From NCBI GenBank assembly GCA_902796895.1, contig CADBQV010000111.1, positions 1 through 11,684 of the forward strand: DNA of 11,684 nucleotides, read 5' to 3'. Source of the stretch: an uncultured Erysipelotrichaceae bacterium. Its GTDB lineage: Bacteria; Bacillota_I; Bacilli_A; Acholeplasmatales; Anaeroplasmataceae. Positions within the stretch are counted from its first letter, which is position 1, and every line of letters begins with the position of its first letter. The translations under genes were made by a program, and so were the position numbers. Positions 1 through 10,472 of the stretch are shown in pieces. Below the pieces are notes generated by a model. That model had not been told where the DNA came from, did no database searches, and worked only from the letters and a program-made list of their open reading frames with translations.

Positions 1-66
1 GATTTAGAAATAGGTATAATAGATGGAAAACAAGAATTATATGATTTCTTTTTGGGTATAAATTAA
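1..66 (+). CDS. 3' end of an unidentified gene (partial)
   Basis: The first 21 codons of the window are open in frame 1 and end with TAA at 64-66. The visible C-terminus ends in YDFFLGIN. The stop lies 10 nt before the start of the next gene, whose ribosome binding site (AAAAGGA, 65-71) overlaps it, so this is probably the upstream member of the same operon. The fragment is too short to assign a family, and it is called mainly because of its position and open frame. Confidence 0.5.
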   Translation, partial: DLEIGIIDGKQELYDFFLGIN

Positions 67-76
67 AAGGAATAAT

Positions 77-1981
77 ATGGAAAATATCAATAAGGTAGTT
101 AAAGAAAGAGTCAATCATTTAAAAAGTAGCAATAAAGATTTTAAAGCTATAATGGATGGCATGTTTTTAAATAAAAATAATATATTTGCTGAAACAAATG
201 ATGGCTATAAAATAACTAAATATACATATGGTGATTTAGAAAATAAAATTAATGATATAGCTTATAGCATTAATAAATTATATCCAGACTTATTAGATTC
301 TTATATAGGTATTATGCAAGAATCAACAATAGAATGGACATATATCTTTTTTGCAATAATTAAAAGTGGTAATAAACCATATTTAATTAATCTAAAGCAT
401 CCAAAGAAATTAATTAATTCACTATTAAAAAGCTTAGATATTAAATATTCTATAGGTTTAAAAGATTTAGAATATGATACATTATTTATTAATTTAAATG
501 ACTTAAATTTAAAATGTGAAAATGATTATAAATTTAATTATGCTAATGAAATGGCACTATCTACAAGTGCTACTACGATGAAAGAAAAAATAATCTTTTA
601 TAGTGGTAATGAAATAGCTAATCAAATATTAAATTGTGAAGGAATATTAAAAGAAAATAAGCAAATAAAAAAGCATTATAAAGGCTATTTAAAACAATTA
701 GTATTCTTACCTTTATATCATATCTTTGGTTTTATGGCTACATTCATGTGGTTTTCATATTTCGGTAGGTGTATGGTATTTTTAAATGATTATTCAAAAG
801 ATACTATATTAAATACTATTAAAAAACATGAAGTAACTCATATATTTGCAGTGCCTCTATTTTGGAATACAATAGAAAAAACAATTAATGCTGAGTTAAA
901 ACAAAAAGATATTAAATTACAAAATAAATTTAAAAAAGGTCAAAAATTAACTATACTTTTACAAAAATTATTTAAATCATATGGCATTAATAAATCTAAA
1001 AAAATAATGAAGGATATTACAAATAATTTATTTGGTAAAAGCGTAATGTTTTGTATAAGTGGTGGATCTTATATTAAAGATTCTACATTATATTTAATTA
1101 ATTCACTTGGATATCCACTATATAATGGATATGGAATGTCTGAAATAGGTATTACATCAGTGACACTTGGTGGAATAAATGATAGACTTAAAAATTCAAT
1201 TGGAAAAAGATTTGGTTCTGTTGAATATAAAATAGAAAATAATCACCTATTTGTTCGTGGTACATCTATAAGCCATAAAATGAAAATAGATGGTGTTATT
1301 TATAATTACAAATTAGAAGATTGGTTTGATACATCTGATATTGTTCATGAAATTAATGATTATTATTATATAGACGGAAGATTTGATGATTTATTTATTT
1401 CAGCTAATGGTGAAAATATCAATCCTGATTTAATTGAAAAAGAATTTAATTTAGATAAGGCTGAAAATATATCAGTAATAGATATAGATAATAAATTATC
1501 ATTAATAATTCAAATAAATGAATACTTACCTAAATCATCTATTGATAATATATATAATGATGTAATAAATATTAATAATAAACTTGATATGACACATCGT
1601 GTTGAAAAAATCTATTTTACATATAATCCAATTAAAAATAGTGAAGCTATAAAGGTATCAAGACAATATCTAAAAGCTAATTTAAAAAATAATAATATTA
1701 CATTAATTAATTATGAAAATATTAAAGAATCAAAATTAAATGTTGATTCAAATATCTTATTAAAGGTTAAAGAATGTATGGCAAATACATTATCTATAGA
1801 TATTAATGATATTAAAGATACTGATAATTTCTTTTTTGATTTAGAAGCATCATCACTTGATTATTTTGATTTAATTTCTAAAATTAATGATACATTTGAT
1901 ATTAAATTATTATTTGAAAATCAAAATCTACAAACAGCTATTTCTATCGCAAAAGAAGTAGAAAGAGTATTATCATTATGA
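77..1981 (+). CDS. AMP-forming acyl ligase with C-terminal acyl carrier domain
   Basis: A 634-residue adenylate-forming enzyme of the ANL superfamily followed by a carrier domain. It is expected to activate a carboxylic, probably fatty, acid with ATP and load it on its own phosphopantetheine arm in the cytosol. Adenylation motifs are readable: YNGYGMSEIG at 349-358, WFDTSD at 416-421, GRFDD at 434-438, NGENINP at 444-450, and a candidate A10 lysine K526 in AIKVSR. The ATP P-loop is odd: STSATTMKEK at 162-171 lacks the usual glycines of TSGTTGxPKG. Residues from about 563 form the carrier, with SSLD at 592-595 where DSL is usual; Ser593 is the predicted pantetheine site. AAAAGGA at 65-71 supports the start. 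Its stop overlaps the start of the acyltransferase gene (ATGA), so the two are probably translationally coupled. The substrate is unknown; an acyl-ACP synthetase (Aas-like) role is inferred from the neighbours. Confidence 0.85.
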   Translation: MENINKVVKERVNHLKSSNKDFKAIMDGMFLNKNNIFAETNDGYKITKYTYGDLENKINDIAYSINKLYPDLLDSYIGIMQESTIEWTYIFFAIIKSGNKPYLINLKHPKKLINSLLKSLDIKYSIGLKDLEYDTLFINLNDLNLKCENDYKFNYANEMALSTSATTMKEKIIFYSGNEIANQILNCEGILKENKQIKKHYKGYLKQLVFLPLYHIFGFMATFMWFSYFGRCMVFLNDYSKDTILNTIKKHEVTHIFAVPLFWNTIEKTINAELKQKDIKLQNKFKKGQKLTILLQKLFKSYGINKSKKIMKDITNNLFGKSVMFCISGGSYIKDSTLYLINSLGYPLYNGYGMSEIGITSVTLGGINDRLKNSIGKRFGSVEYKIENNHLFVRGTSISHKMKIDGVIYNYKLEDWFDTSDIVHEINDYYYIDGRFDDLFISANGENINPDLIEKEFNLDKAENISVIDIDNKLSLIIQINEYLPKSSIDNIYNDVININNKLDMTHRVEKIYFTYNPIKNSEAIKVSRQYLKANLKNNNITLINYENIKESKLNVDSNILLKVKECMANTLSIDINDIKDTDNFFFDLEASSLDYFDLISKINDTFDIKLLFENQNLQTAISIAKEVERVLSL

Positions 1982-3246
1982 TAATTTTATATATTATTGG
2001 TTATATATTTGCTTGGCCAGTACAATTTATATTTTTTAAAAAGAAAGTATATTATGAGGATAAAAAGGATACAAATAGAAAAGTTAAAGGTGGAGCTTTA
2101 ATTATATCTAATCATAAAAGCTTATTTGATTTTATGATGTCTATGTTTTTATTCTATTTTAAAAAATTATATTGTATCATGTCTGAATTAATATATTCAC
2201 ATGGACCAATTTTATCTTTACTTACTACCGTTATGGGTGGTATAAAAACAGATAGAAAAAAATATGATTTTTCATTTATTGATAAATCAGTTAATTTATT
2301 AAATAAAAATAAATTATTAATGATTTATCCCGAAGGAAGAATCAATAAAGAAAATAGCTTAGCTAAATTTCATCCTACATATATTTTAATTGCTTTAAAA
2401 TCTAATAAGCCTATAATTCCTATCTATACTGATGGTAAATATAGCTTATTTAAAAGAACAAGAGTAGTAATTGGTAAAAAAATATATTTAAGAGATTATA
2501 CAAATAGCTTAAATCCAGATAAAGAAGAAATTGAAAGATTAAATAATATTATCAAAAACAAAATTAATGAATTAAAAAGAATATATCAAAATAAATTAAA
2601 TGATGAATTATACCCTAATAAAGGCCTACACTTTAAATATTTTTCTAAGGACATGGGAAGAATATTAACATTTATATTAAATGGATGGTATCGCCTAAAA
2701 GTATTTAATAAGGGAAGACATAAAAAGAATTTAAAAATTAAGGGTGGTGCCGTGGTATTTGCCAACCACACATCTTTTGCTGACCCACTACTTACAATAA
2801 ATGCATATTGGCGAAGAAGAATATATATAGTTACTGCCGAAGTCTTATTTGATGGTCATCCTAAAAGATCTAAGCTACTTGAAAAAATAGGATGTATAAG
2901 AGTAGATAGAAACACAAATGATATTGATGCTTATAAAAAGATAATAGATGTACTTAAGGCAGGAAATATCGTTGTAGTATTCGGTCCAGGACATATCGAT
3001 GTAGGTGAGAATGAAGATTATAAGGATGGTGCTGTACTATTCGCATCTAAAGCAAAAGTACCAATTTATCCTATATATATTTGTAAAAGAGAAAAGAAAT
3101 TCGAAAGATTTAAATTAATATGTGGCGAAAGATATGATATCGATTATTCTAAGAGATTAAAGGAAGAAGATGTAACTAAAATAACTAATGATTTAAAGAA
3201 TAAAATAATGGAATTAAGGGATAATTATAAAGATGGCAAATTTTAG
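1978..3246 (+). CDS. Tandem PlsC-type (lyso)phospholipid acyltransferase
   Basis: A 422-residue protein made of two PlsC/LPLAT domains. Members transfer acyl chains from acyl-ACP or acyl-CoA to glycerophosphate or lysophospholipids at the inner membrane face. A hydrophobic segment at about 2-20 should anchor it. Domain 1 has NHKSLFD (catalytic His46 and Asp51) and YPEGRI at 117-122. Domain 2 has NHTSFAD (His264 and Asp269), but the expected EGTR block reads FGPGHID at 335-341, so the conserved Glu and Arg are absent. Domain 2 may therefore bind its acyl acceptor differently or be impaired. The start overlaps the ligase stop by 4 nt, and the end overlaps the LRAT-like gene by 14 nt, so the three should be co-expressed. 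The family call is firm; substrate and the order of acylation are unknown. Both domains are in one open frame with no sign of frameshift. Confidence 0.88.
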   Translation: MIILYIIGYIFAWPVQFIFFKKKVYYEDKKDTNRKVKGGALIISNHKSLFDFMMSMFLFYFKKLYCIMSELIYSHGPILSLLTTVMGGIKTDRKKYDFSFIDKSVNLLNKNKLLMIYPEGRINKENSLAKFHPTYILIALKSNKPIIPIYTDGKYSLFKRTRVVIGKKIYLRDYTNSLNPDKEEIERLNNIIKNKINELKRIYQNKLNDELYPNKGLHFKYFSKDMGRILTFILNGWYRLKVFNKGRHKKNLKIKGGAVVFANHTSFADPLLTINAYWRRRIYIVTAEVLFDGHPKRSKLLEKIGCIRVDRNTNDIDAYKKIIDVLKAGNIVVVFGPGHIDVGENEDYKDGAVLFASKAKVPIYPIYICKREKKFERFKLICGERYDIDYSKRLKEEDVTKITNDLKNKIMELRDNYKDGKF

Positions 3247-3601
3247 TTTGAAGGATGCAAAATATGCAGATATAATTAGAGTTAAAATAAGAGATGATTA
3301 TTATCATTATGGCATATTTGAAAATGAAAATTCAGTATATGAATTTGGTTCTGCCAAAGATGCATTTAAAACTGATAGTAAGGATATAAGTGTTATTAAT
3401 GTTACAATTAAAGAATTCTTAGATGGTAAATTCTTAGAAGTAAGAGAATATTCATTAAAAGAAAAATTTAAAAAGAATAAGCCAGATATTATAATAAAAA
3501 AAGCCAAGGAAAGACTTGGTGAAAAGGGATATAATATTATATCTAATAATTGCCTACATTTTGTAAATGAATGTGTATTTAATAAAAAGGATGTAAAATG
3601 A
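3233..3601 (+). CDS. LRAT-like thiol acyltransferase/hydrolase domain protein
   Basis: A 122-residue protein that looks like a minimal LRAT (lecithin:retinol acyltransferase) domain, a circularly permuted branch of the NlpC/P60 cysteine-enzyme superfamily. In LRAT proteins a Cys takes an acyl group from a phospholipid and passes it to an alcohol, amine or water. Visible landmarks are YADIIRV near the start, HYGIF with His25, and NNCLHFVNEC with the predicted nucleophile Cys107, matching the NCEHF signature. The usual second His lies 12 residues after the first; here that position is Glu37 in VYEFG, so the third polar residue differs. No signal peptide is seen. The start ATG lies inside the end of the acyltransferase gene, with AAGGGA at 3216-3221 upstream. 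It is the last gene before a terminator. Placement after an acyl ligase and acyltransferases supports a lipid role; cysteine hydrolase or amidase activity remains possible. Confidence 0.78.
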   Translation: MANFSLKDAKYADIIRVKIRDDYYHYGIFENENSVYEFGSAKDAFKTDSKDISVINVTIKEFLDGKFLEVREYSLKEKFKKNKPDIIIKKAKERLGEKGYNIISNNCLHFVNECVFNKKDVK

Positions 3602-3603
3602 TT

Positions 3604-3638
3604 GGAAGGAATAAAAAATCCTTCCTTTTATTTATTTT
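3604..3638 (+). terminator. Rho-independent terminator of the lipid operon
   Basis: GGAAGGA (3604-3610) pairs perfectly with TCCTTCC (3619-3625) around an 8-nt A-rich loop, followed by TTTTATTTATTTT. It begins 3 nt after the TGA of the LRAT-like gene and separates it from the next promoter. Confidence 0.85.
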
Positions 3639-3641
3639 AAA

Positions 3642-5722: not shown

Positions 5723-7933
5723 ATGAAAATAAAAAAAGTAATACTTGCAAGTGCTTTAATATTATCTGGCTTATTATTATCTAATGTTACTACTATAAAT
5801 GCTATCGAAGAATTAGAGTTACCATCAATAATGAGGAAGTTTGAAGCAATACATGCTGAATTTAATAAAGTTTCAAACGCAACGTCTTATACTGCAAAAT
5901 ATAAAGCAGATAATGATTCAACTTATAAGGATTTAGATAACGAATTAGTAAGAATAAAAGATGACAAGGTTATAGTAGATGTTGTAGGATTAAAAGAAGG
6001 ATATTATAATGTAAAATTAATCCCTAATGTTGGCGATGAAATAGAATTAAGAGATATTGAAGTTTTTTCTGATGATAGATCAGGATATGCACATTTTGGT
6101 TATAACGATGGTATTGGTGCATATAAAGATGATGGAACACTTAAGGATAACGCAACTGTATTATATGTAACAGAAGATACAAAAAATAACCCAATAACTT
6201 ATAAAAATAAAACATATAATAATTTTGTTGATCTATTAACAAAATCAGAATCTAAAGATCCACTTGTTATAAGATTTGTAGGAAAAATAAGTGCCGCAAC
6301 ATGGAAAAAAATTGATTATAAAAATAATATTAATGTTGGTGAATCTACAGTAGAAAAGCTTGCAGAAAATTTTTATGATATAAATATAAAAGATTCTACA
6401 GGAAAAAATTCATTTTCATACACAGGAAGTAGCTATTCTTTAGATGAAGATCAATTAATAGATGGTAACTATAATGAATTAGATACAACTCAATATTCAA
6501 AATTAAATAATTTAAATTCTAAATTGTCTATATCTAAAGAAAAGAAAACTAAAAGTGGTATTTCAACTTCAGTTAATAACTATGATTCTTGTTGGAATGA
6601 TTGCCAAATAAAAAGTATGGATTATGTTACACTTGAAGGAATTGGACTTGATGCTGAAATATTCCAATGGGGATTTACTGTTAGTAATTGTAATTCAATT
6701 GAAGTTAAAAATTTAACATTTACTGATTACCCAGAAGATGCTATAGGTATTCAAGGAAACAATAGTGATGCATCAGTATATGGAAATTATTGGATTCATA
6801 ACTGTACATTTAATCAAGGTAAAAATTATTGGGATCCTACATATGAACAAGATAAGCATGAAGGTGATGGCGCTACTGATTTTAAAGGTGGTCATGGACT
6901 AACAATTTCTTATTGTAAATATAATGATACACATAAAACATGCTTAATTGGCGGAGATGATAAAAATTTACAAAAAGATATAACATTACATCATAATTAT
7001 TATTTAAATGCAACATCAAGAATGCCACTTGTAAGACAAGCTAATATTCATATGTATAATAATTATTATAAAGGTATTGAATCAGCTGGATTAAGCTCAA
7101 GAGCAAAATGTAATGCCTTTGTAGAAAATTGTTATTTTGAAAATGGCAAAAATCCATTAGTCATTGTTCCAAAATCAGATAAATTAAATGAAGGAACTAT
7201 TGGCACATCAATAAAGGCAGTGGGAAATATTTTTGCTGGTGATTATACACTATCTACTAATAAGAGTGATGGATATAATTATGATCACGATGGAATTTAT
7301 TATGTCTCATCTACAACTGAAGCAACATCACAAAATGTCACATCACAAACATTAACAAGAGATACACAAGTTGAAAAAAGTCGTATGGTTGGTTATATAG
7401 ATTATGCTAATTTTGATACAAATTCAAGTATATTTTATTATGATGATGTTAAGCATGAATCAAATGTAAAATTAATGCATAATGCAACAGAAGTACCTGA
7501 ATTTTGCAAAAGATATTCAGGTGTAAAGTTTGAAGAAACAGAAGAAACAATACTTAGATTAGGATATCAAATAGGTACATATACTAAAGATAATAGTCAA
7601 TATTATGCAGTAAGATTTATTGGTAAAATTAATTTTAGTGACGAATTTGAATTATCAGATGTTGATAAAATAGTATTTAATTTCAAAATATATGATAATG
7701 ATGATAATTTGGTTAAAGAAGTATCAAATGTAAGAATAGAGAGTATGTATAATGTTTTATATTCGTCAGATAATAATGTTGTTGCACCTAGAATAAATAA
7801 TACAAAATATTTCTATCAAATAATTAATAATATAACACCATCTCAAAATGGTTATAAAATTAAAGCATTTGTTCGTATTACAGAAGAATATGATATAAGT
7901 GATGAAATAGAATACGTGGTAGATGTATTATGA
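5723..7933 (+). CDS. Secreted pectate lyase, polysaccharide lyase family 1
   Basis: A 736-residue extracellular enzyme expected to cleave de-esterified polygalacturonate by Ca2+-dependent beta-elimination. Residues 1-27 form a Sec signal peptide (KIKK, a hydrophobic core, cleavage probably after INA). About 30-110 look like a fibronectin-III-like beta domain. The PL1 right-handed beta-helix covers roughly 120-560, with WIHNCTF, DGATDFKGG (Asp382 and Asp386, probable Ca2+ ligands), GLTISYCKYNDTHKTCLIG, LHHNYY at 422-427, RMPLVR at 433-438 with the candidate catalytic Arg438, and HMYNNYY. The C-terminal 130 residues form another beta-rich domain of unknown family. There is no LPXTG or other anchor, so the enzyme should be free or non-covalently bound. 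GGGGG (5711-5715) precedes the start by 7 nt. The stop overlaps the lipoprotein start. Pectin lyase is less likely given the Asp ligands. Confidence 0.9.
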   Translation: MKIKKVILASALILSGLLLSNVTTINAIEELELPSIMRKFEAIHAEFNKVSNATSYTAKYKADNDSTYKDLDNELVRIKDDKVIVDVVGLKEGYYNVKLIPNVGDEIELRDIEVFSDDRSGYAHFGYNDGIGAYKDDGTLKDNATVLYVTEDTKNNPITYKNKTYNNFVDLLTKSESKDPLVIRFVGKISAATWKKIDYKNNINVGESTVEKLAENFYDINIKDSTGKNSFSYTGSSYSLDEDQLIDGNYNELDTTQYSKLNNLNSKLSISKEKKTKSGISTSVNNYDSCWNDCQIKSMDYVTLEGIGLDAEIFQWGFTVSNCNSIEVKNLTFTDYPEDAIGIQGNNSDASVYGNYWIHNCTFNQGKNYWDPTYEQDKHEGDGATDFKGGHGLTISYCKYNDTHKTCLIGGDDKNLQKDITLHHNYYLNATSRMPLVRQANIHMYNNYYKGIESAGLSSRAKCNAFVENCYFENGKNPLVIVPKSDKLNEGTIGTSIKAVGNIFAGDYTLSTNKSDGYNYDHDGIYYVSSTTEATSQNVTSQTLTRDTQVEKSRMVGYIDYANFDTNSSIFYYDDVKHESNVKLMHNATEVPEFCKRYSGVKFEETEETILRLGYQIGTYTKDNSQYYAVRFIGKINFSDEFELSDVDKIVFNFKIYDNDDNLVKEVSNVRIESMYNVLYSSDNNVVAPRINNTKYFYQIINNITPSQNGYKIKAFVRITEEYDISDEIEYVVDVL

Positions 7934-8154
7934 AAAAATATATTTTAATATTATCTATATTTTCTTTATTATTAGTATCTTGTAATAAAAAGATAGATAA
8001 TGATAATAATGAAACTAAAACAAATGATACAACTACATCACCAAATACAAATAACAGCGATATTATAGATGATACTACAACACCAAAAAGTGATAGTAGT
8101 GAAACTACAGATACAATATCAATATCTTGGGAAGATGAAATACATTGGGGATAG
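7930..8154 (+). CDS. Small Ser/Thr/Asn/Asp-rich lipoprotein
   Basis: A 74-residue lipoprotein precursor. Residues 1-17 are a lipoprotein signal peptide with lipobox LVSC and lipidated Cys18. The mature 57 residues are a low-complexity, acidic Asn/Asp/Thr/Ser stretch such as those that lift surface proteins off the membrane, but no folded domain follows; the protein simply ends ISWEDEIHWG. The start overlaps the pectate lyase stop by 4 nt (ATGA), so it is likely translated together with the lyase. I could not find a frameshifted continuation: the next frame leads into a separate cupin with its own start. It may be a surface peptide of unknown function, or a remnant that lost its domain. No homologue is recognised. 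Confidence 0.75.
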   Translation: MKKYILILSIFSLLLVSCNKKIDNDNNETKTNDTTTSPNTNNSDIIDDTTTPKSDSSETTDTISISWEDEIHWG

Positions 8155-8489: not shown

Positions 8490-8536
8490 AAATAAGCGAT
8501 AGCTCATGGTTTTGAGCTATCGCTTATTTATTTTAA
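8490..8536. terminator. Bidirectional rho-independent terminator between convergent genes
   Basis: A 17-bp perfect hairpin: 8490-8506 (core AAGCGATAGCTCA) pairs with 8513-8529 around the 6-nt loop TGGTTT. The + strand continues TTTATTTT and the - strand reads TTTTTTATT, so both directions have a U-rich tail. The TAA of the - strand gene (8530-8528) overlaps the end of the stem, and the cupin stop is at 8486-8488. It should end transcription from both sides. Confidence 0.92.
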
Positions 8537-10438
8537 ATTGTTATTTTTAATAAATTTAATAAATTCTTCCTTGCATACTGGTCTAGAATAATAAAAGCCT
8601 TGAATATAATCTATATCCATATCTAGAGCTTTATTAATACTATCTAAATCCTCAATACCTTCTAATACAATTGATAAATTTAAGCTTTTAATCATTTCAA
8701 TTATTTTACTAATAACTAATTTAGCTTTATCATCATTGAAATATGAATTAACAAGTATTCTATCGAATTTAACAATTTCAACTGGCATTTCAATAATATA
8801 ATTTAAATTTGAATTACCAGTACCGAAATCATCAAGTGAGAATTCTACACCATATTCTATTAATTTATTCATATTTTTAAGCATTATTTGCTTTAAATTA
8901 GTAGAAGCAGTTTCAGTGATTTCTAAATTAATATTACTTGGTTCAATATTATATTCTTCCATAATACTAATATATCTATCAGCTAAATTTGGATTACCAC
9001 ATTGAATTACTGATAGGTTTACTTCAATATAATTCATATTAAGTGAATTTAAATTATTTTCTTTAATGAATTTACATACATGGACAAATACCATTTCACC
9101 AAGTGTTGAGATTAAACCATTCTTTTCAGCTATTTCAATAAAAGAAGAAGGATAGATGATATTTCCATCATCATCTTTTATTCTTATTAATGCTTCAGCT
9201 GCAGTAAATCTATTATCCTTTTTAGAAAATATAGGTTGATAATATACTTCAATTAAATCCTTATCAATGGCATTTTGTAATACCTTTGCCATCTTTTTAG
9301 CTTCTTCAATTTTATCAATTGTTGATTTATCAATATAATTGATTTGATTTTTAAGTGAAATAGTCTTTTTATCAATTAATTCAGTCATTATATCGTTAAA
9401 TCCTTCATAATTCTTTAATATTGAAGAATCTTCAAATAATATAACCTTTAAATCAAATACATTTTTATAATCATGCTCGTATTCAGTTTCTTTTATACGT
9501 ATGTCTAATAAATTAAAGAAGTCTTTAGTTGTCGAATTTCTAATTAATATGATAAATCCATATTCATTTTTGAATGTTAAATATGTATTTCTAGATGAAA
9601 ATAGCTTATTATTAGTAAAGCTTGATAATATATTAGATAAAAGTACAGTAGCTTTAGCTCTTTCTTGATCATTTTGTGATTTATTTTCAAGCATTATATA
9701 AACTATCTTAAAATCAATTTTTGATTCATAAAAATCAGTCATACATTCTTCAAGTACTGAGAAATTAAATATTGATGTTTCACTATCAATAGATAAGGCA
9801 GGGTTTTCTAAATTAACATAAATTATTATTAATGCAGCTGCAGATGCAAATCCTACAACTAAAATATATTTGAAGAAGAATTGAACTAATGCAGCTAAAA
9901 TCCAAAATATCATCCATATTAAAAGAGAATCTCTTTTTCCTTTTGATAATACTTTGCTGTTTAATATAACATATATAATTGTTGTTATGATAAATATGCC
10001 AGTTGTGATATAGCATATATATGCAGAAGTACCTTCAGTATATAATTCTTTATCAGTAACTACGAATTTTAAATCATACATGAACATTAATATACCTGAT
10101 GCTATAATCAATAAAATTATTATTGAATATATTACCCATCTAATTTTAAGATTATATTTTAATGCACCATTTACTGCATATATTAAGCCCATCGATGATT
10201 CAATTACTAAAAATACTAAATATAATTTACATAAAAATATTGTTAAATCATACGAGAATAAATCTTGATGCAATATACATTCAATTGAAAATATATCTAA
10301 AAATAATAAAAGGAAGGTTGCAAGGGATACAAGCAAGAATAAAAAACCAGACTTTAATGTTAATCTTTTTTGTGCTAAATAAAATGAAGCAATTATCAAG
10401 ATTATAACCATTCCGGCTGTTTGAAATGCTATAAACAT
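8528..10438 (-). CDS. Membrane EAL-domain c-di-GMP phosphodiesterase with degenerate GGDEF
   Basis: Expected to hydrolyse c-di-GMP to pGpG and so favour motile or low-biofilm states. Read from M at 10438 (636 residues), about 1-220 form some seven hydrophobic helices, resembling a 7TM sensor input domain. About 225-385 is a degenerate GGDEF fold: the signature is replaced by KNEYGF (290-295), so no cyclase activity is expected. The EAL domain spans about 395-636 and appears complete: AEALIR (Glu415), EVNLSVIQ, LEITETA, DDFGTG (536-541), VKFDR, LEGIE (Glu593), QGFYYSRP. I chose this start over the longer one (10465, nine more residues) because GAGGGGAGGG ends 5 nt upstream of it while the longer start has no ribosome binding site. 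The gene is alone on the - strand; the signal sensed and cyclase partner are not in this window. Confidence 0.93.
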   Translation of the reverse strand: MFIAFQTAGMVIILIIASFYLAQKRLTLKSGFLFLLVSLATFLLLFLDIFSIECILHQDLFSYDLTIFLCKLYLVFLVIESSMGLIYAVNGALKYNLKIRWVIYSIIILLIIASGILMFMYDLKFVVTDKELYTEGTSAYICYITTGIFIITTIIYVILNSKVLSKGKRDSLLIWMIFWILAALVQFFFKYILVVGFASAAALIIIYVNLENPALSIDSETSIFNFSVLEECMTDFYESKIDFKIVYIMLENKSQNDQERAKATVLLSNILSSFTNNKLFSSRNTYLTFKNEYGFIILIRNSTTKDFFNLLDIRIKETEYEHDYKNVFDLKVILFEDSSILKNYEGFNDIMTELIDKKTISLKNQINYIDKSTIDKIEEAKKMAKVLQNAIDKDLIEVYYQPIFSKKDNRFTAAEALIRIKDDDGNIIYPSSFIEIAEKNGLISTLGEMVFVHVCKFIKENNLNSLNMNYIEVNLSVIQCGNPNLADRYISIMEEYNIEPSNINLEITETASTNLKQIMLKNMNKLIEYGVEFSLDDFGTGNSNLNYIIEMPVEIVKFDRILVNSYFNDDKAKLVISKIIEMIKSLNLSIVLEGIEDLDSINKALDMDIDYIQGFYYSRPVCKEEFIKFIKNNNLK

Positions 10439-10443
10439 TATAT

Positions 10444-10453
10444 CCCTCCCCTC
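10444..10453 (-). promoter_or_regulatory. Shine-Dalgarno deciding the start of the EAL gene
   Basis: On the - strand GAGGGGAGGG reads 10453 to 10444, five bases before the ATG at 10438. It is G-rich in an otherwise AT-rich region and stands out. It supports initiation at 10438 and not at 10465. Confidence 0.7.
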
Positions 10454-10463
10454 GTTTTTCTTC

Positions 10464-10472
10464 ATTTTATCA
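10464..10472 (-). promoter_or_regulatory. Possible extended -10 promoter of the EAL gene
   Basis: On the - strand TGATAAAAT (10472 to 10464) reads as an extended -10 element (TG, one base, TAAAAT). No good -35 hexamer lies 17 nt upstream. If it is used, transcription would start near 10457, downstream of the alternative ATG at 10465, which agrees with the chosen start. The region is so AT-rich that chance matches are likely. Confidence 0.3.

What the first reader, a model, noticed from the sequence alone, without database searches (positions are those of the whole stretch)
1..3640. Unusual acyl-transfer operon: carrier-fused ligase, double PlsC and LRAT-like protein
The genes touch or overlap and share one terminator. 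A self-loading acyl ligase (with built-in carrier), two acyltransferase domains and a Cys-type LRAT-like enzyme together make a complete hypothetical route: activate a fatty acid, hold it on the carrier, pass it to a glycerolipid, and remodel or move it on to an amine or alcohol. The ligase and PlsC parts are like E. coli Aas split in two; the LRAT addition is not something I know from a described bacterial pathway. The product could be an unusual lipid or an N-acyl compound. The function is inference from context.
Basis: partly seen in the sequence, partly recalled or inferred. Interest (0 to 1): 0.75.

Follow-up and report, generated by a model that had tools for sequence, protein, structure and literature searches.

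The report
Gut bacterial fatty-acid-to-lipid gene cluster
A set of neighbouring genes, found in many little-studied gut and rumen bacteria, looks built to activate fatty acids, hold them on carrier proteins and attach them to membrane lipids, with an unexpected relative of human phospholipid-remodelling enzymes as a frequent member; what it makes is not yet known.

The parts
1..66 (+). 3' end of a fakA-like gene (fatty acid kinase catalytic subunit), cut by the contig start
   Evidence: Translation aligns to the last 20 residues of FakA of L016 (score 86, best of 100 shuffles 37) and L017 (83 vs 39); 3 of 12 FakAs (L019, L021, L027) did not exceed their shuffles; 0 of 8 PPTases did
77..1981 (+). 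Acyl ligase of the adenylate-forming (ANL) superfamily with C-terminal acyl carrier domain, 634 aa
   Evidence: PF00501 91.3 bits, PF00550 29.4 bits; Lys526 and Ser593 invariant in 21 homologues
1978..3246 (+). Double PlsC-type acyltransferase, 422 aa
   Evidence: two PF01553 stretches; HX4D His and Asp in 77 of 77 first and 59 of 59 second domains examined
3233..3601 (+). LRAT/PLAAT-like cysteine acyltransferase candidate, 122 aa (His25, Cys107)
   Evidence: PF04970 63.7 bits; PDB profile hits PLAAT/LRAT, 9 of 9; model pLDDT 88.3, PLAAT fold
3604..3625 (+). Intrinsic-terminator-like hairpin after the last gene
   Evidence: 7 pairs, 8-base loop, T-rich tail

Best explanation
A carrier-dependent glycerolipid acylation or remodelling module. 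FakA/FakB activate free fatty acids to acyl-phosphate, which PlsX can exchange onto acyl carrier protein; in parallel the ligase adenylates an acyl acid and loads its own carrier domain (made holo by a PPTase). The PlsC domains take acyl groups from the carrier and put them on lysophospholipid or glycerol phosphate. The LRAT-like enzyme forms a Cys107-acyl intermediate and moves an acyl group between carrier and lipid: either from acyl-carrier to a lipid acceptor, or by deacylating a phospholipid so that PlsC can reacylate it. Shown here: gene order, conservation, domains, catalytic residues, predicted fold, co-inheritance. Inferred: every reaction, the acyl substrate, the acceptor and the direction.
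For: Neighbourhood: within 80 ligase-baited loci FakA in 54, FakB in 55, PlsX in 29, PlsC directly downstream in 73, ACP downstream in 55, LRAT downstream in 47. ACP lies 6-95 bases before LRAT in 39 of 39 loci holding both. LRAT-PPTase fusions: 5 of the 10 long cluster LRATs carry PF01648 above cut-off, and 119 of the 120 listed homologues (185 found) of one such fusion, L147, carry both domains (the bait and its length favour fusions); catalytic residues of both are invariant in 31, both folds recognised. From the LRAT side: of 34 cluster genomes I chose, 15 have LRAT and the strongest hit of each lies in a cluster: 10 in the ligase-baited loci, 5 in other clusters that all carry ACP, two PlsC and a second ligase. 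A second-type PlsX (split by score, post hoc) is in 12 of 13 ligase genomes and 0 of 47 others (Fisher 9e-12, relatedness ignored). Ligase and LRAT distances correlate, r 0.81 over 45 rows, 0 of 2000 permutations as high; 48 cluster LRATs split cleanly from 30 paralogues, support 0.984.
Against: No reaction was tested. The ligase resembles MenE-type ligases at least as much as fatty-acyl ligases and its P-loop is non-canonical, so fatty acyl specificity rests on context. LRAT is absent from 20 of the 59 loci with at least 6.5 kb downstream and from 19 of the 34 genomes, so it is optional. In the window no PPTase or free ACP gene adjoins and the L017-type PPTase was not found in this 79% complete MAG (another PF01648 protein is at C203), so the PPTase link comes from relatives; in the window's closest relatives that PPTase has an altered WxxKE motif. 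PlsC motif III varies. Mantel and phyletic tests do not separate functional linkage from shared ancestry.
Confidence: 0.55

Rival explanations
1. A dedicated biosynthetic route to a distinct acylated lipid or N-acyl compound (for example a triacylated, glycosylated or N-acylated lipid), with LRAT adding an acyl group to an amine or hydroxyl. (Overlaps with the best explanation; the odds are not exclusive.)
For: Two ligases, a dedicated ACP, LRAT, two PlsC and, in L141 and L147, an LRAT with C-terminal extension (a PPTase in L147) in one cluster; HRASLS-2/3 make N-acyl-PE (stated in PMC7387801, passage); ordinary PlsX and PlsY are present besides; a GT2 glycosyltransferase group (24 proteins, one typed by Pfam) and alpha/beta hydrolases lie further out in a number of loci.
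Against: I saw no head-group or acceptor-making gene held constantly inside the cluster; FakAB and PlsX point to ordinary fatty-acid recycling.
Confidence: 0.25
2. A lysophospholipid salvage system like LplT-Aas: the MFS_2 protein moves lysolipid inward, ligase-carrier and PlsC reacylate it, and LRAT makes or handles lysolipid. (A special form of the best explanation.)
For: MFS_2 gene in 22 of 80 loci, between ligase and PlsC in L125, L136, L139, L147 and L149, and in 5 of 5 second clusters; LplT-Aas couples lysolipid flipping and acylation (PMC11416262, abstract and outline).
Against: The window and 40 of 47 LRAT loci show no MFS_2 gene; two MFS_2 proteins had no PDB sequence relative and one matched only sugar-symporter models, below cut-off, so the substrate is open.
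Confidence: 0.25
3. The LRAT-like protein is a thioesterase or editing enzyme that strips mis-loaded acyl groups from the carriers, not a transferase.
For: Directly downstream of ACP (39 of 39) and fused to PPTase in some; relatives of this fold can hydrolyse (Tox-Act1 cleaves PG and PE, PMC12994826, passages).
Against: Relatives with known function act on lipid esters; no hydrolysis data here.
Confidence: 0.15
4. Chance neighbours or an annotation artefact without joint function.
For: Most records are MAG contigs; LRAT comes and goes on the ligase tree (6 changes at least).
Against: Conserved order across records titled Acholeplasmatales, Bacilli and Clostridia, overlapping genes, fusions, and one cultured strain (L123).
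Confidence: 0.02

Closest known systems
E. coli Aas (acyl-ACP synthetase / lysophospholipid acyltransferase) with LplT
   Same: PlsC plus adenylating ligase acting with an acyl carrier; in some relatives an MFS-type protein in the cluster
   Different: Separate polypeptides, ligase carries its own carrier domain, two PlsC domains, FakAB/PlsX and an LRAT-like enzyme added; Aas model cut-offs not reached; described for Gram-negatives (PMC11416262 abstract)
FakAB-PlsX exogenous fatty acid activation of Firmicutes
   Same: FakA, FakB and PlsX homologues in the same cluster or co-occurring
   Different: Here joined to an ATP-dependent ligase, own carriers, PPTase, PlsC pair and LRAT
Human PLAAT/HRASLS and LRAT (PF04970)
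   Same: Predicted fold, His25 and Cys107 at the catalytic positions, NC[EL]HF motif
   Different: Second His replaced by Gln/Glu/Ala; the protein ends soon after the domain; in some Clostridia fused to a PPTase; linked to acyl carriers
LnsA of S. aureus (permuted NlpC/P60, lipoprotein N-acylation with LnsB)
   Same: Bacterial Cys-His protein of the permuted NlpC/P60 group needed for an acyl transfer
   Different: LnsA has a predicted export signal and works with LnsB on lipoproteins (PMC7387801 passages); this one lies in a fatty-acid/carrier cluster

Membership tests
LRAT/PLAAT (PF04970) | Profile score above Pfam cut-off | tested here: met
   63.7 bits vs 24.3
LRAT/PLAAT (PF04970) | PLAAT fold | tested here: met
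LRAT/PLAAT (PF04970) | Catalytic Cys and first His | tested here: met
   invariant in 56 of 56 and 46 of 46 (His25, Cys107)
LRAT/PLAAT (PF04970) | Second His (Cys-His-His triad, as stated in PMC10318531, passages) | tested here: not met
   aligned position is Gln 46, Glu 7, Ala 3 of 56 (placed by the PLAAT3 alignment); window Glu37. Hence called PLAAT-like, not filed as a PLAAT or LRAT enzyme
E. coli Aas | PlsC and ligase in one protein | tested here: not met
   separate genes
E. coli Aas | Score above the Aas model cut-off | tested here: not met
   double PlsC vs NF005959: 52.3 bits, cut-off 886
E. coli Aas | Acyl transfer to lysophosphatidylethanolamine | not testable with these tools
   needs an enzyme assay
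Adenylate-forming ligase with carrier | PF00501 and PF00550 above cut-offs, catalytic Lys, carrier Ser | tested here: met
   (Lys526, Ser593 invariant in 21; their roles by recalled motifs)
Adenylate-forming ligase with carrier | Canonical P-loop [ST]SG[ST]TGxPK (motif recalled) | tested here: not met
   STSATTMKEK in the window; STSATT is also the majority of 21
FakAB-PlsX system | FakA, FakB and PlsX linked to the cluster | tested here: met
   in relatives: YloV (DAK2 fusion) 514.9 bits vs 396.1 and DegV 188.4 vs 99.7 in L017, PF02504 178.3 vs 29.1 in L025. Not reached: FakA_VfrB equivalog 417 vs 975, FakB1 88.3 vs 350, plsX TIGR00182 199 vs 243.4
Sfp-type PPTase in the LRAT fusion | PF01648 above cut-off, GxDxE and WxxKExxxK, fold | tested here: met
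   L136, L143, L146, L147, L149, motifs in 31, fold for L147; five shorter proteins have no PF01648 match
LnsA | Export signal and LnsB partner | not tested
   no signal prediction or LnsB search was run
LplT | Lysophospholipid flipping by the MFS protein | not testable with these tools
   MFS_2 proteins only in relatives; none among the window genes typed

The most novel reading that the evidence does not exclude
A new class of carrier-protein-dependent, PLAAT-fold acyltransferases: a bacterial enzyme, in some lineages built together with its own phosphopantetheinyl transferase, that moves acyl groups directly between acyl carrier protein and membrane lipids within a pathway of many gut Bacilli and Clostridia for a remodelled or so far unknown lipid.
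Probability: 0.35. Interest if true: 0.8.

Novelty: new variant of a known kind. Interest (0 to 1): 0.6.

Why it matters
PLAAT/LRAT enzymes are best known from vertebrates, as phospholipid remodelers using lipid-bound acyl chains (PMC7387801 passages, and recalled). A conserved bacterial counterpart next to, and in places fused with, carrier-protein machinery would suggest a different donor (acyl-ACP) and would give gut and rumen bacteria an Aas-like remodelling route, which the LplT-Aas abstract describes for Gram-negatives. It also predicts a membrane-lipid trait that can be tested in a cultured strain, Anaeroplasma bactoclasticum ATCC 27112.

Tried and rejected
PPTase directly upstream in the window: first assumed from the relatives (notebook), then rejected, because window 1-66 is the FakA end. 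Peptidase reading of the LRAT-like protein: PF05903 is below cut-off (18.8 vs 29.2) and canonical NlpC/P60 folds score low. The cluster as the only phospholipid route: rejected, PlsY in 55 of 60 and PlsX in 60 of 60 genomes. Absence of fatty acid synthesis: rejected for the own genome, whose contig C82 holds a FASII-like operon (genes other than the ketoacyl synthase named by eye); all 11 ligase genomes of the genus have a ketoacyl synthase match, but 20 of 60 genomes have none, among them the ligase genomes G036 and G040 of another family. MFS_2 as an MFSD2A-like lysolipid carrier: no PDB sequence match, left open. ORF-only gene calling missed some ACP and LRAT genes under antisense ORFs and was replaced by six-frame profile search, whose profiles were built from the same loci. 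Ligase presence in the 80 is by construction. Paper searches listed no description of this cluster (titles and abstract starts seen); search 39 on Anaeroplasma lipids gave nothing useful.
Full report
What is there. The window is one 11,684-base contig of a metagenome-assembled genome (1.45 Mb, 79% complete); named homologues of its ligase are labelled Acholeplasmatales. Three genes on the + strand overlap: ligase 77-1981, double PlsC 1978-3246, LRAT-like 3233-3601, then a terminator-like hairpin 3604-3625. Pfam supports each domain above its cut-off. No NCBIfam model reached its cut-off for these three proteins; the nearest miss is AGP_acyltrn for the double PlsC, 99.0 vs 102.95 bits, which a clostridial homologue does reach (126.4). 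Bases 1-66 encode the C-terminus of a FakA-like protein, so the contig begins inside a longer operon.

Active sites. In 21 ligases (the others 43-77% identical to the window's) Lys526, the GR of GRxDD and the carrier serine Ser593 are invariant, while the P-loop reads TSATT in most. A profile of them matches MenE-type ligases best and acyl carrier proteins over the C-terminal part. The PlsC HX4D His and Asp are present in 77 of 77 first and 59 of 59 second domains examined; motif III varies (Glu or Gln in most, others in some; FGPGH in the window's second domain). The LRAT-like His and Cys are present in 56 of 56 cluster members; the residue aligned with PLAAT His35 is Gln 46, Glu 7 or Ala 3.

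Relatives. A ligase match (E 1e-30 or better) occurs in 13 of 60 genomes searched, the own genome included. Of the 12 relative loci, three are cut by contig ends before an LRAT gene could appear (L024, L026, L027); of the other nine, eight have ligase-PlsC-LRAT in order (L025 with a small ACP gene between) and one, L018, lacks LRAT. FakA lies upstream of the ligase in 12 of 12 loci and FakB in 11; a PPTase-like gene lies between FakA and the ligase in eight, PlsX in two (L025, L026). The PPTase assignment is borderline by Pfam in L017 (24.9 vs cut-off 25), and neither L017 nor L019 reaches an NCBIfam cut-off; four of the eight operon copies (genomes G003, G018, G019, G022) pass PF01648, and profile comparison supports it (hhalign probability 99.3 against the set with L080, 98.7 against the fusion domains; 22.5 against the shortened ones). 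In the window's nearest relatives its WxxKE motif is altered.

Second PlsX. A lower-scoring second type of PlsX (175-269 bits, against 280 or more for the other; a split made after seeing the scores) occurs in 12 of the 13 ligase genomes and in none of the other 47. G001 has only the first type, G000 only the second; G005 has two copies, both of first-type score and context. Fisher p is 9e-12 with relatedness ignored. In L059 and L066 this PlsX follows its own FakB and FakA.

Wider spread. Six-frame profile search of these 80: PlsC directly downstream in 73, ACP downstream in 55, LRAT downstream in 47; anywhere in the locus FakA 54, FakB 55, PlsX 29, MFS_2 22, separate PPTase 17, second ligase 11. 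Among the 59 loci with at least 6.5 kb downstream: 54 PlsC, 43 ACP, 39 LRAT. In the 39 loci with both ACP and LRAT the gap is 6-95 bases. The eight LRAT loci without a free ACP are six of the window's own group (L072-L076, L123) plus L136 and L139. On the ligase tree a clade of 15 rows, mostly with a single PlsC and an upstream MFS_2 gene, has no LRAT in the loci.

LRAT-PPTase fusion. Ten of the 47 cluster LRATs are 282-346 aa long. Five carry PF01648 above cut-off (L136, L143, L146, L147, L149); five (L141, L144, L148, L150, L151) have no such match and look like shortened versions of the same C-terminal part. A search with L147 found 185 homologues; 119 of the 120 listed carry both domains (bait and length limits favour fusions). 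The alignment of 31 keeps the LRAT His and Cys and the PPTase GxDxE and WxxKExxxK residues. The model (pLDDT 92.4, pTM 0.67) matches Sfp-type PPTases and PLAATs. This is the strongest hint that the LRAT-like enzyme works with carrier proteins.

From the LRAT side. I searched 34 genomes behind the ligase loci: 24 whose locus shows no LRAT and 10 whose locus does. Fifteen had hits: all 10 of the latter, at the cluster position (checked by hand from coordinates), and 5 of the former, in other clusters (L158-L162) that have ACP, two PlsC, a second ligase and MFS_2 in 5 of 5 and the first ligase in 4 of 5. Two further hits were the A. bactoclasticum paralogue and a weak one in a 788-aa frame where the profiles found no other cluster gene (L163). 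Nineteen genomes had none. Cluster LRATs (48) split from 30 non-cluster paralogues, all from the window's order or nearer, with support 0.984; ligase and LRAT distances correlate at r 0.81 over 45 rows (0 of 2000 permutations as high). Species ancestry was not controlled.

Mechanism and status. Shown: parts, order, conservation, residues, predicted fold, fusion. Inferred: acyl activation, carrier loading, lipid acylation, Cys-acyl transfer. I favour a carrier-dependent phospholipid acylation or remodelling module (0.55); a distinct-lipid pathway (0.25) and LplT-Aas-like salvage (0.25) overlap with it, and an editing role for LRAT is possible (0.15). The own genome also has FASII-like genes, PlsX and PlsY, so the cluster looks like an addition to ordinary lipid synthesis there.

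Literature. Passages seen: PMC7387801 (LnsA/LnsB), PMC12994826 (Tox-Act1, a permuted NlpC/P60 phospholipase), PMC10318531 (papain-like families, CHH triad for LRAT), PMC12409351, PMC6680752. Abstract and outline: PMC11416262 (LplT-Aas). Search listings only for the FakAB/PlsX papers. No listed paper described this cluster or an LRAT-PPTase fusion; the library holds few subscription papers.

Noticed in passing
L154 5099-7453, L153 7886-10321, L155 5661-8048: A FASII-like operon of this genus encodes a roughly 785-811 aa protein with two ketoacyl-synthase domains, the first with NACAAG and HGTGT, the second with NGSQSG/NGCQSG/NGAQAG at the matching place: a fused KS/chain-length-factor-like pair (analogy recalled), the only KS found in G015.
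   Followed up: partly
L028 6206-6610 and loci L029-L058: A second LRAT-like paralogue outside the cluster occurs in many of these genomes (beside a ROK-type kinase gene, named by eye, in the own genome) and forms its own clade.
   Followed up: partly
L060-L065, L068: In most of these loci the second-type PlsX sits beside a peptide-deformylase-like gene and, further on where the contig reaches, branched-chain amino acid genes (names by eye).
   Followed up: no
L111, L118, L122 and similar: A sister cluster type has FakB-FakA-MFS_2-ligase-PlsC followed by a gene of the alpha/beta hydrolase group, without LRAT.
   Followed up: no
window 5723-7933: Pectate lyase-like protein (PF00544) with a signal-like N-terminus by eye, followed by a 74-aa lipoprotein-like ORF at 7930-8154.
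   Followed up: no
window 8528-10465 (-): EAL-domain protein (PF00563) with a hydrophobic N-terminal part by eye, a c-di-GMP phosphodiesterase candidate.
   Followed up: no
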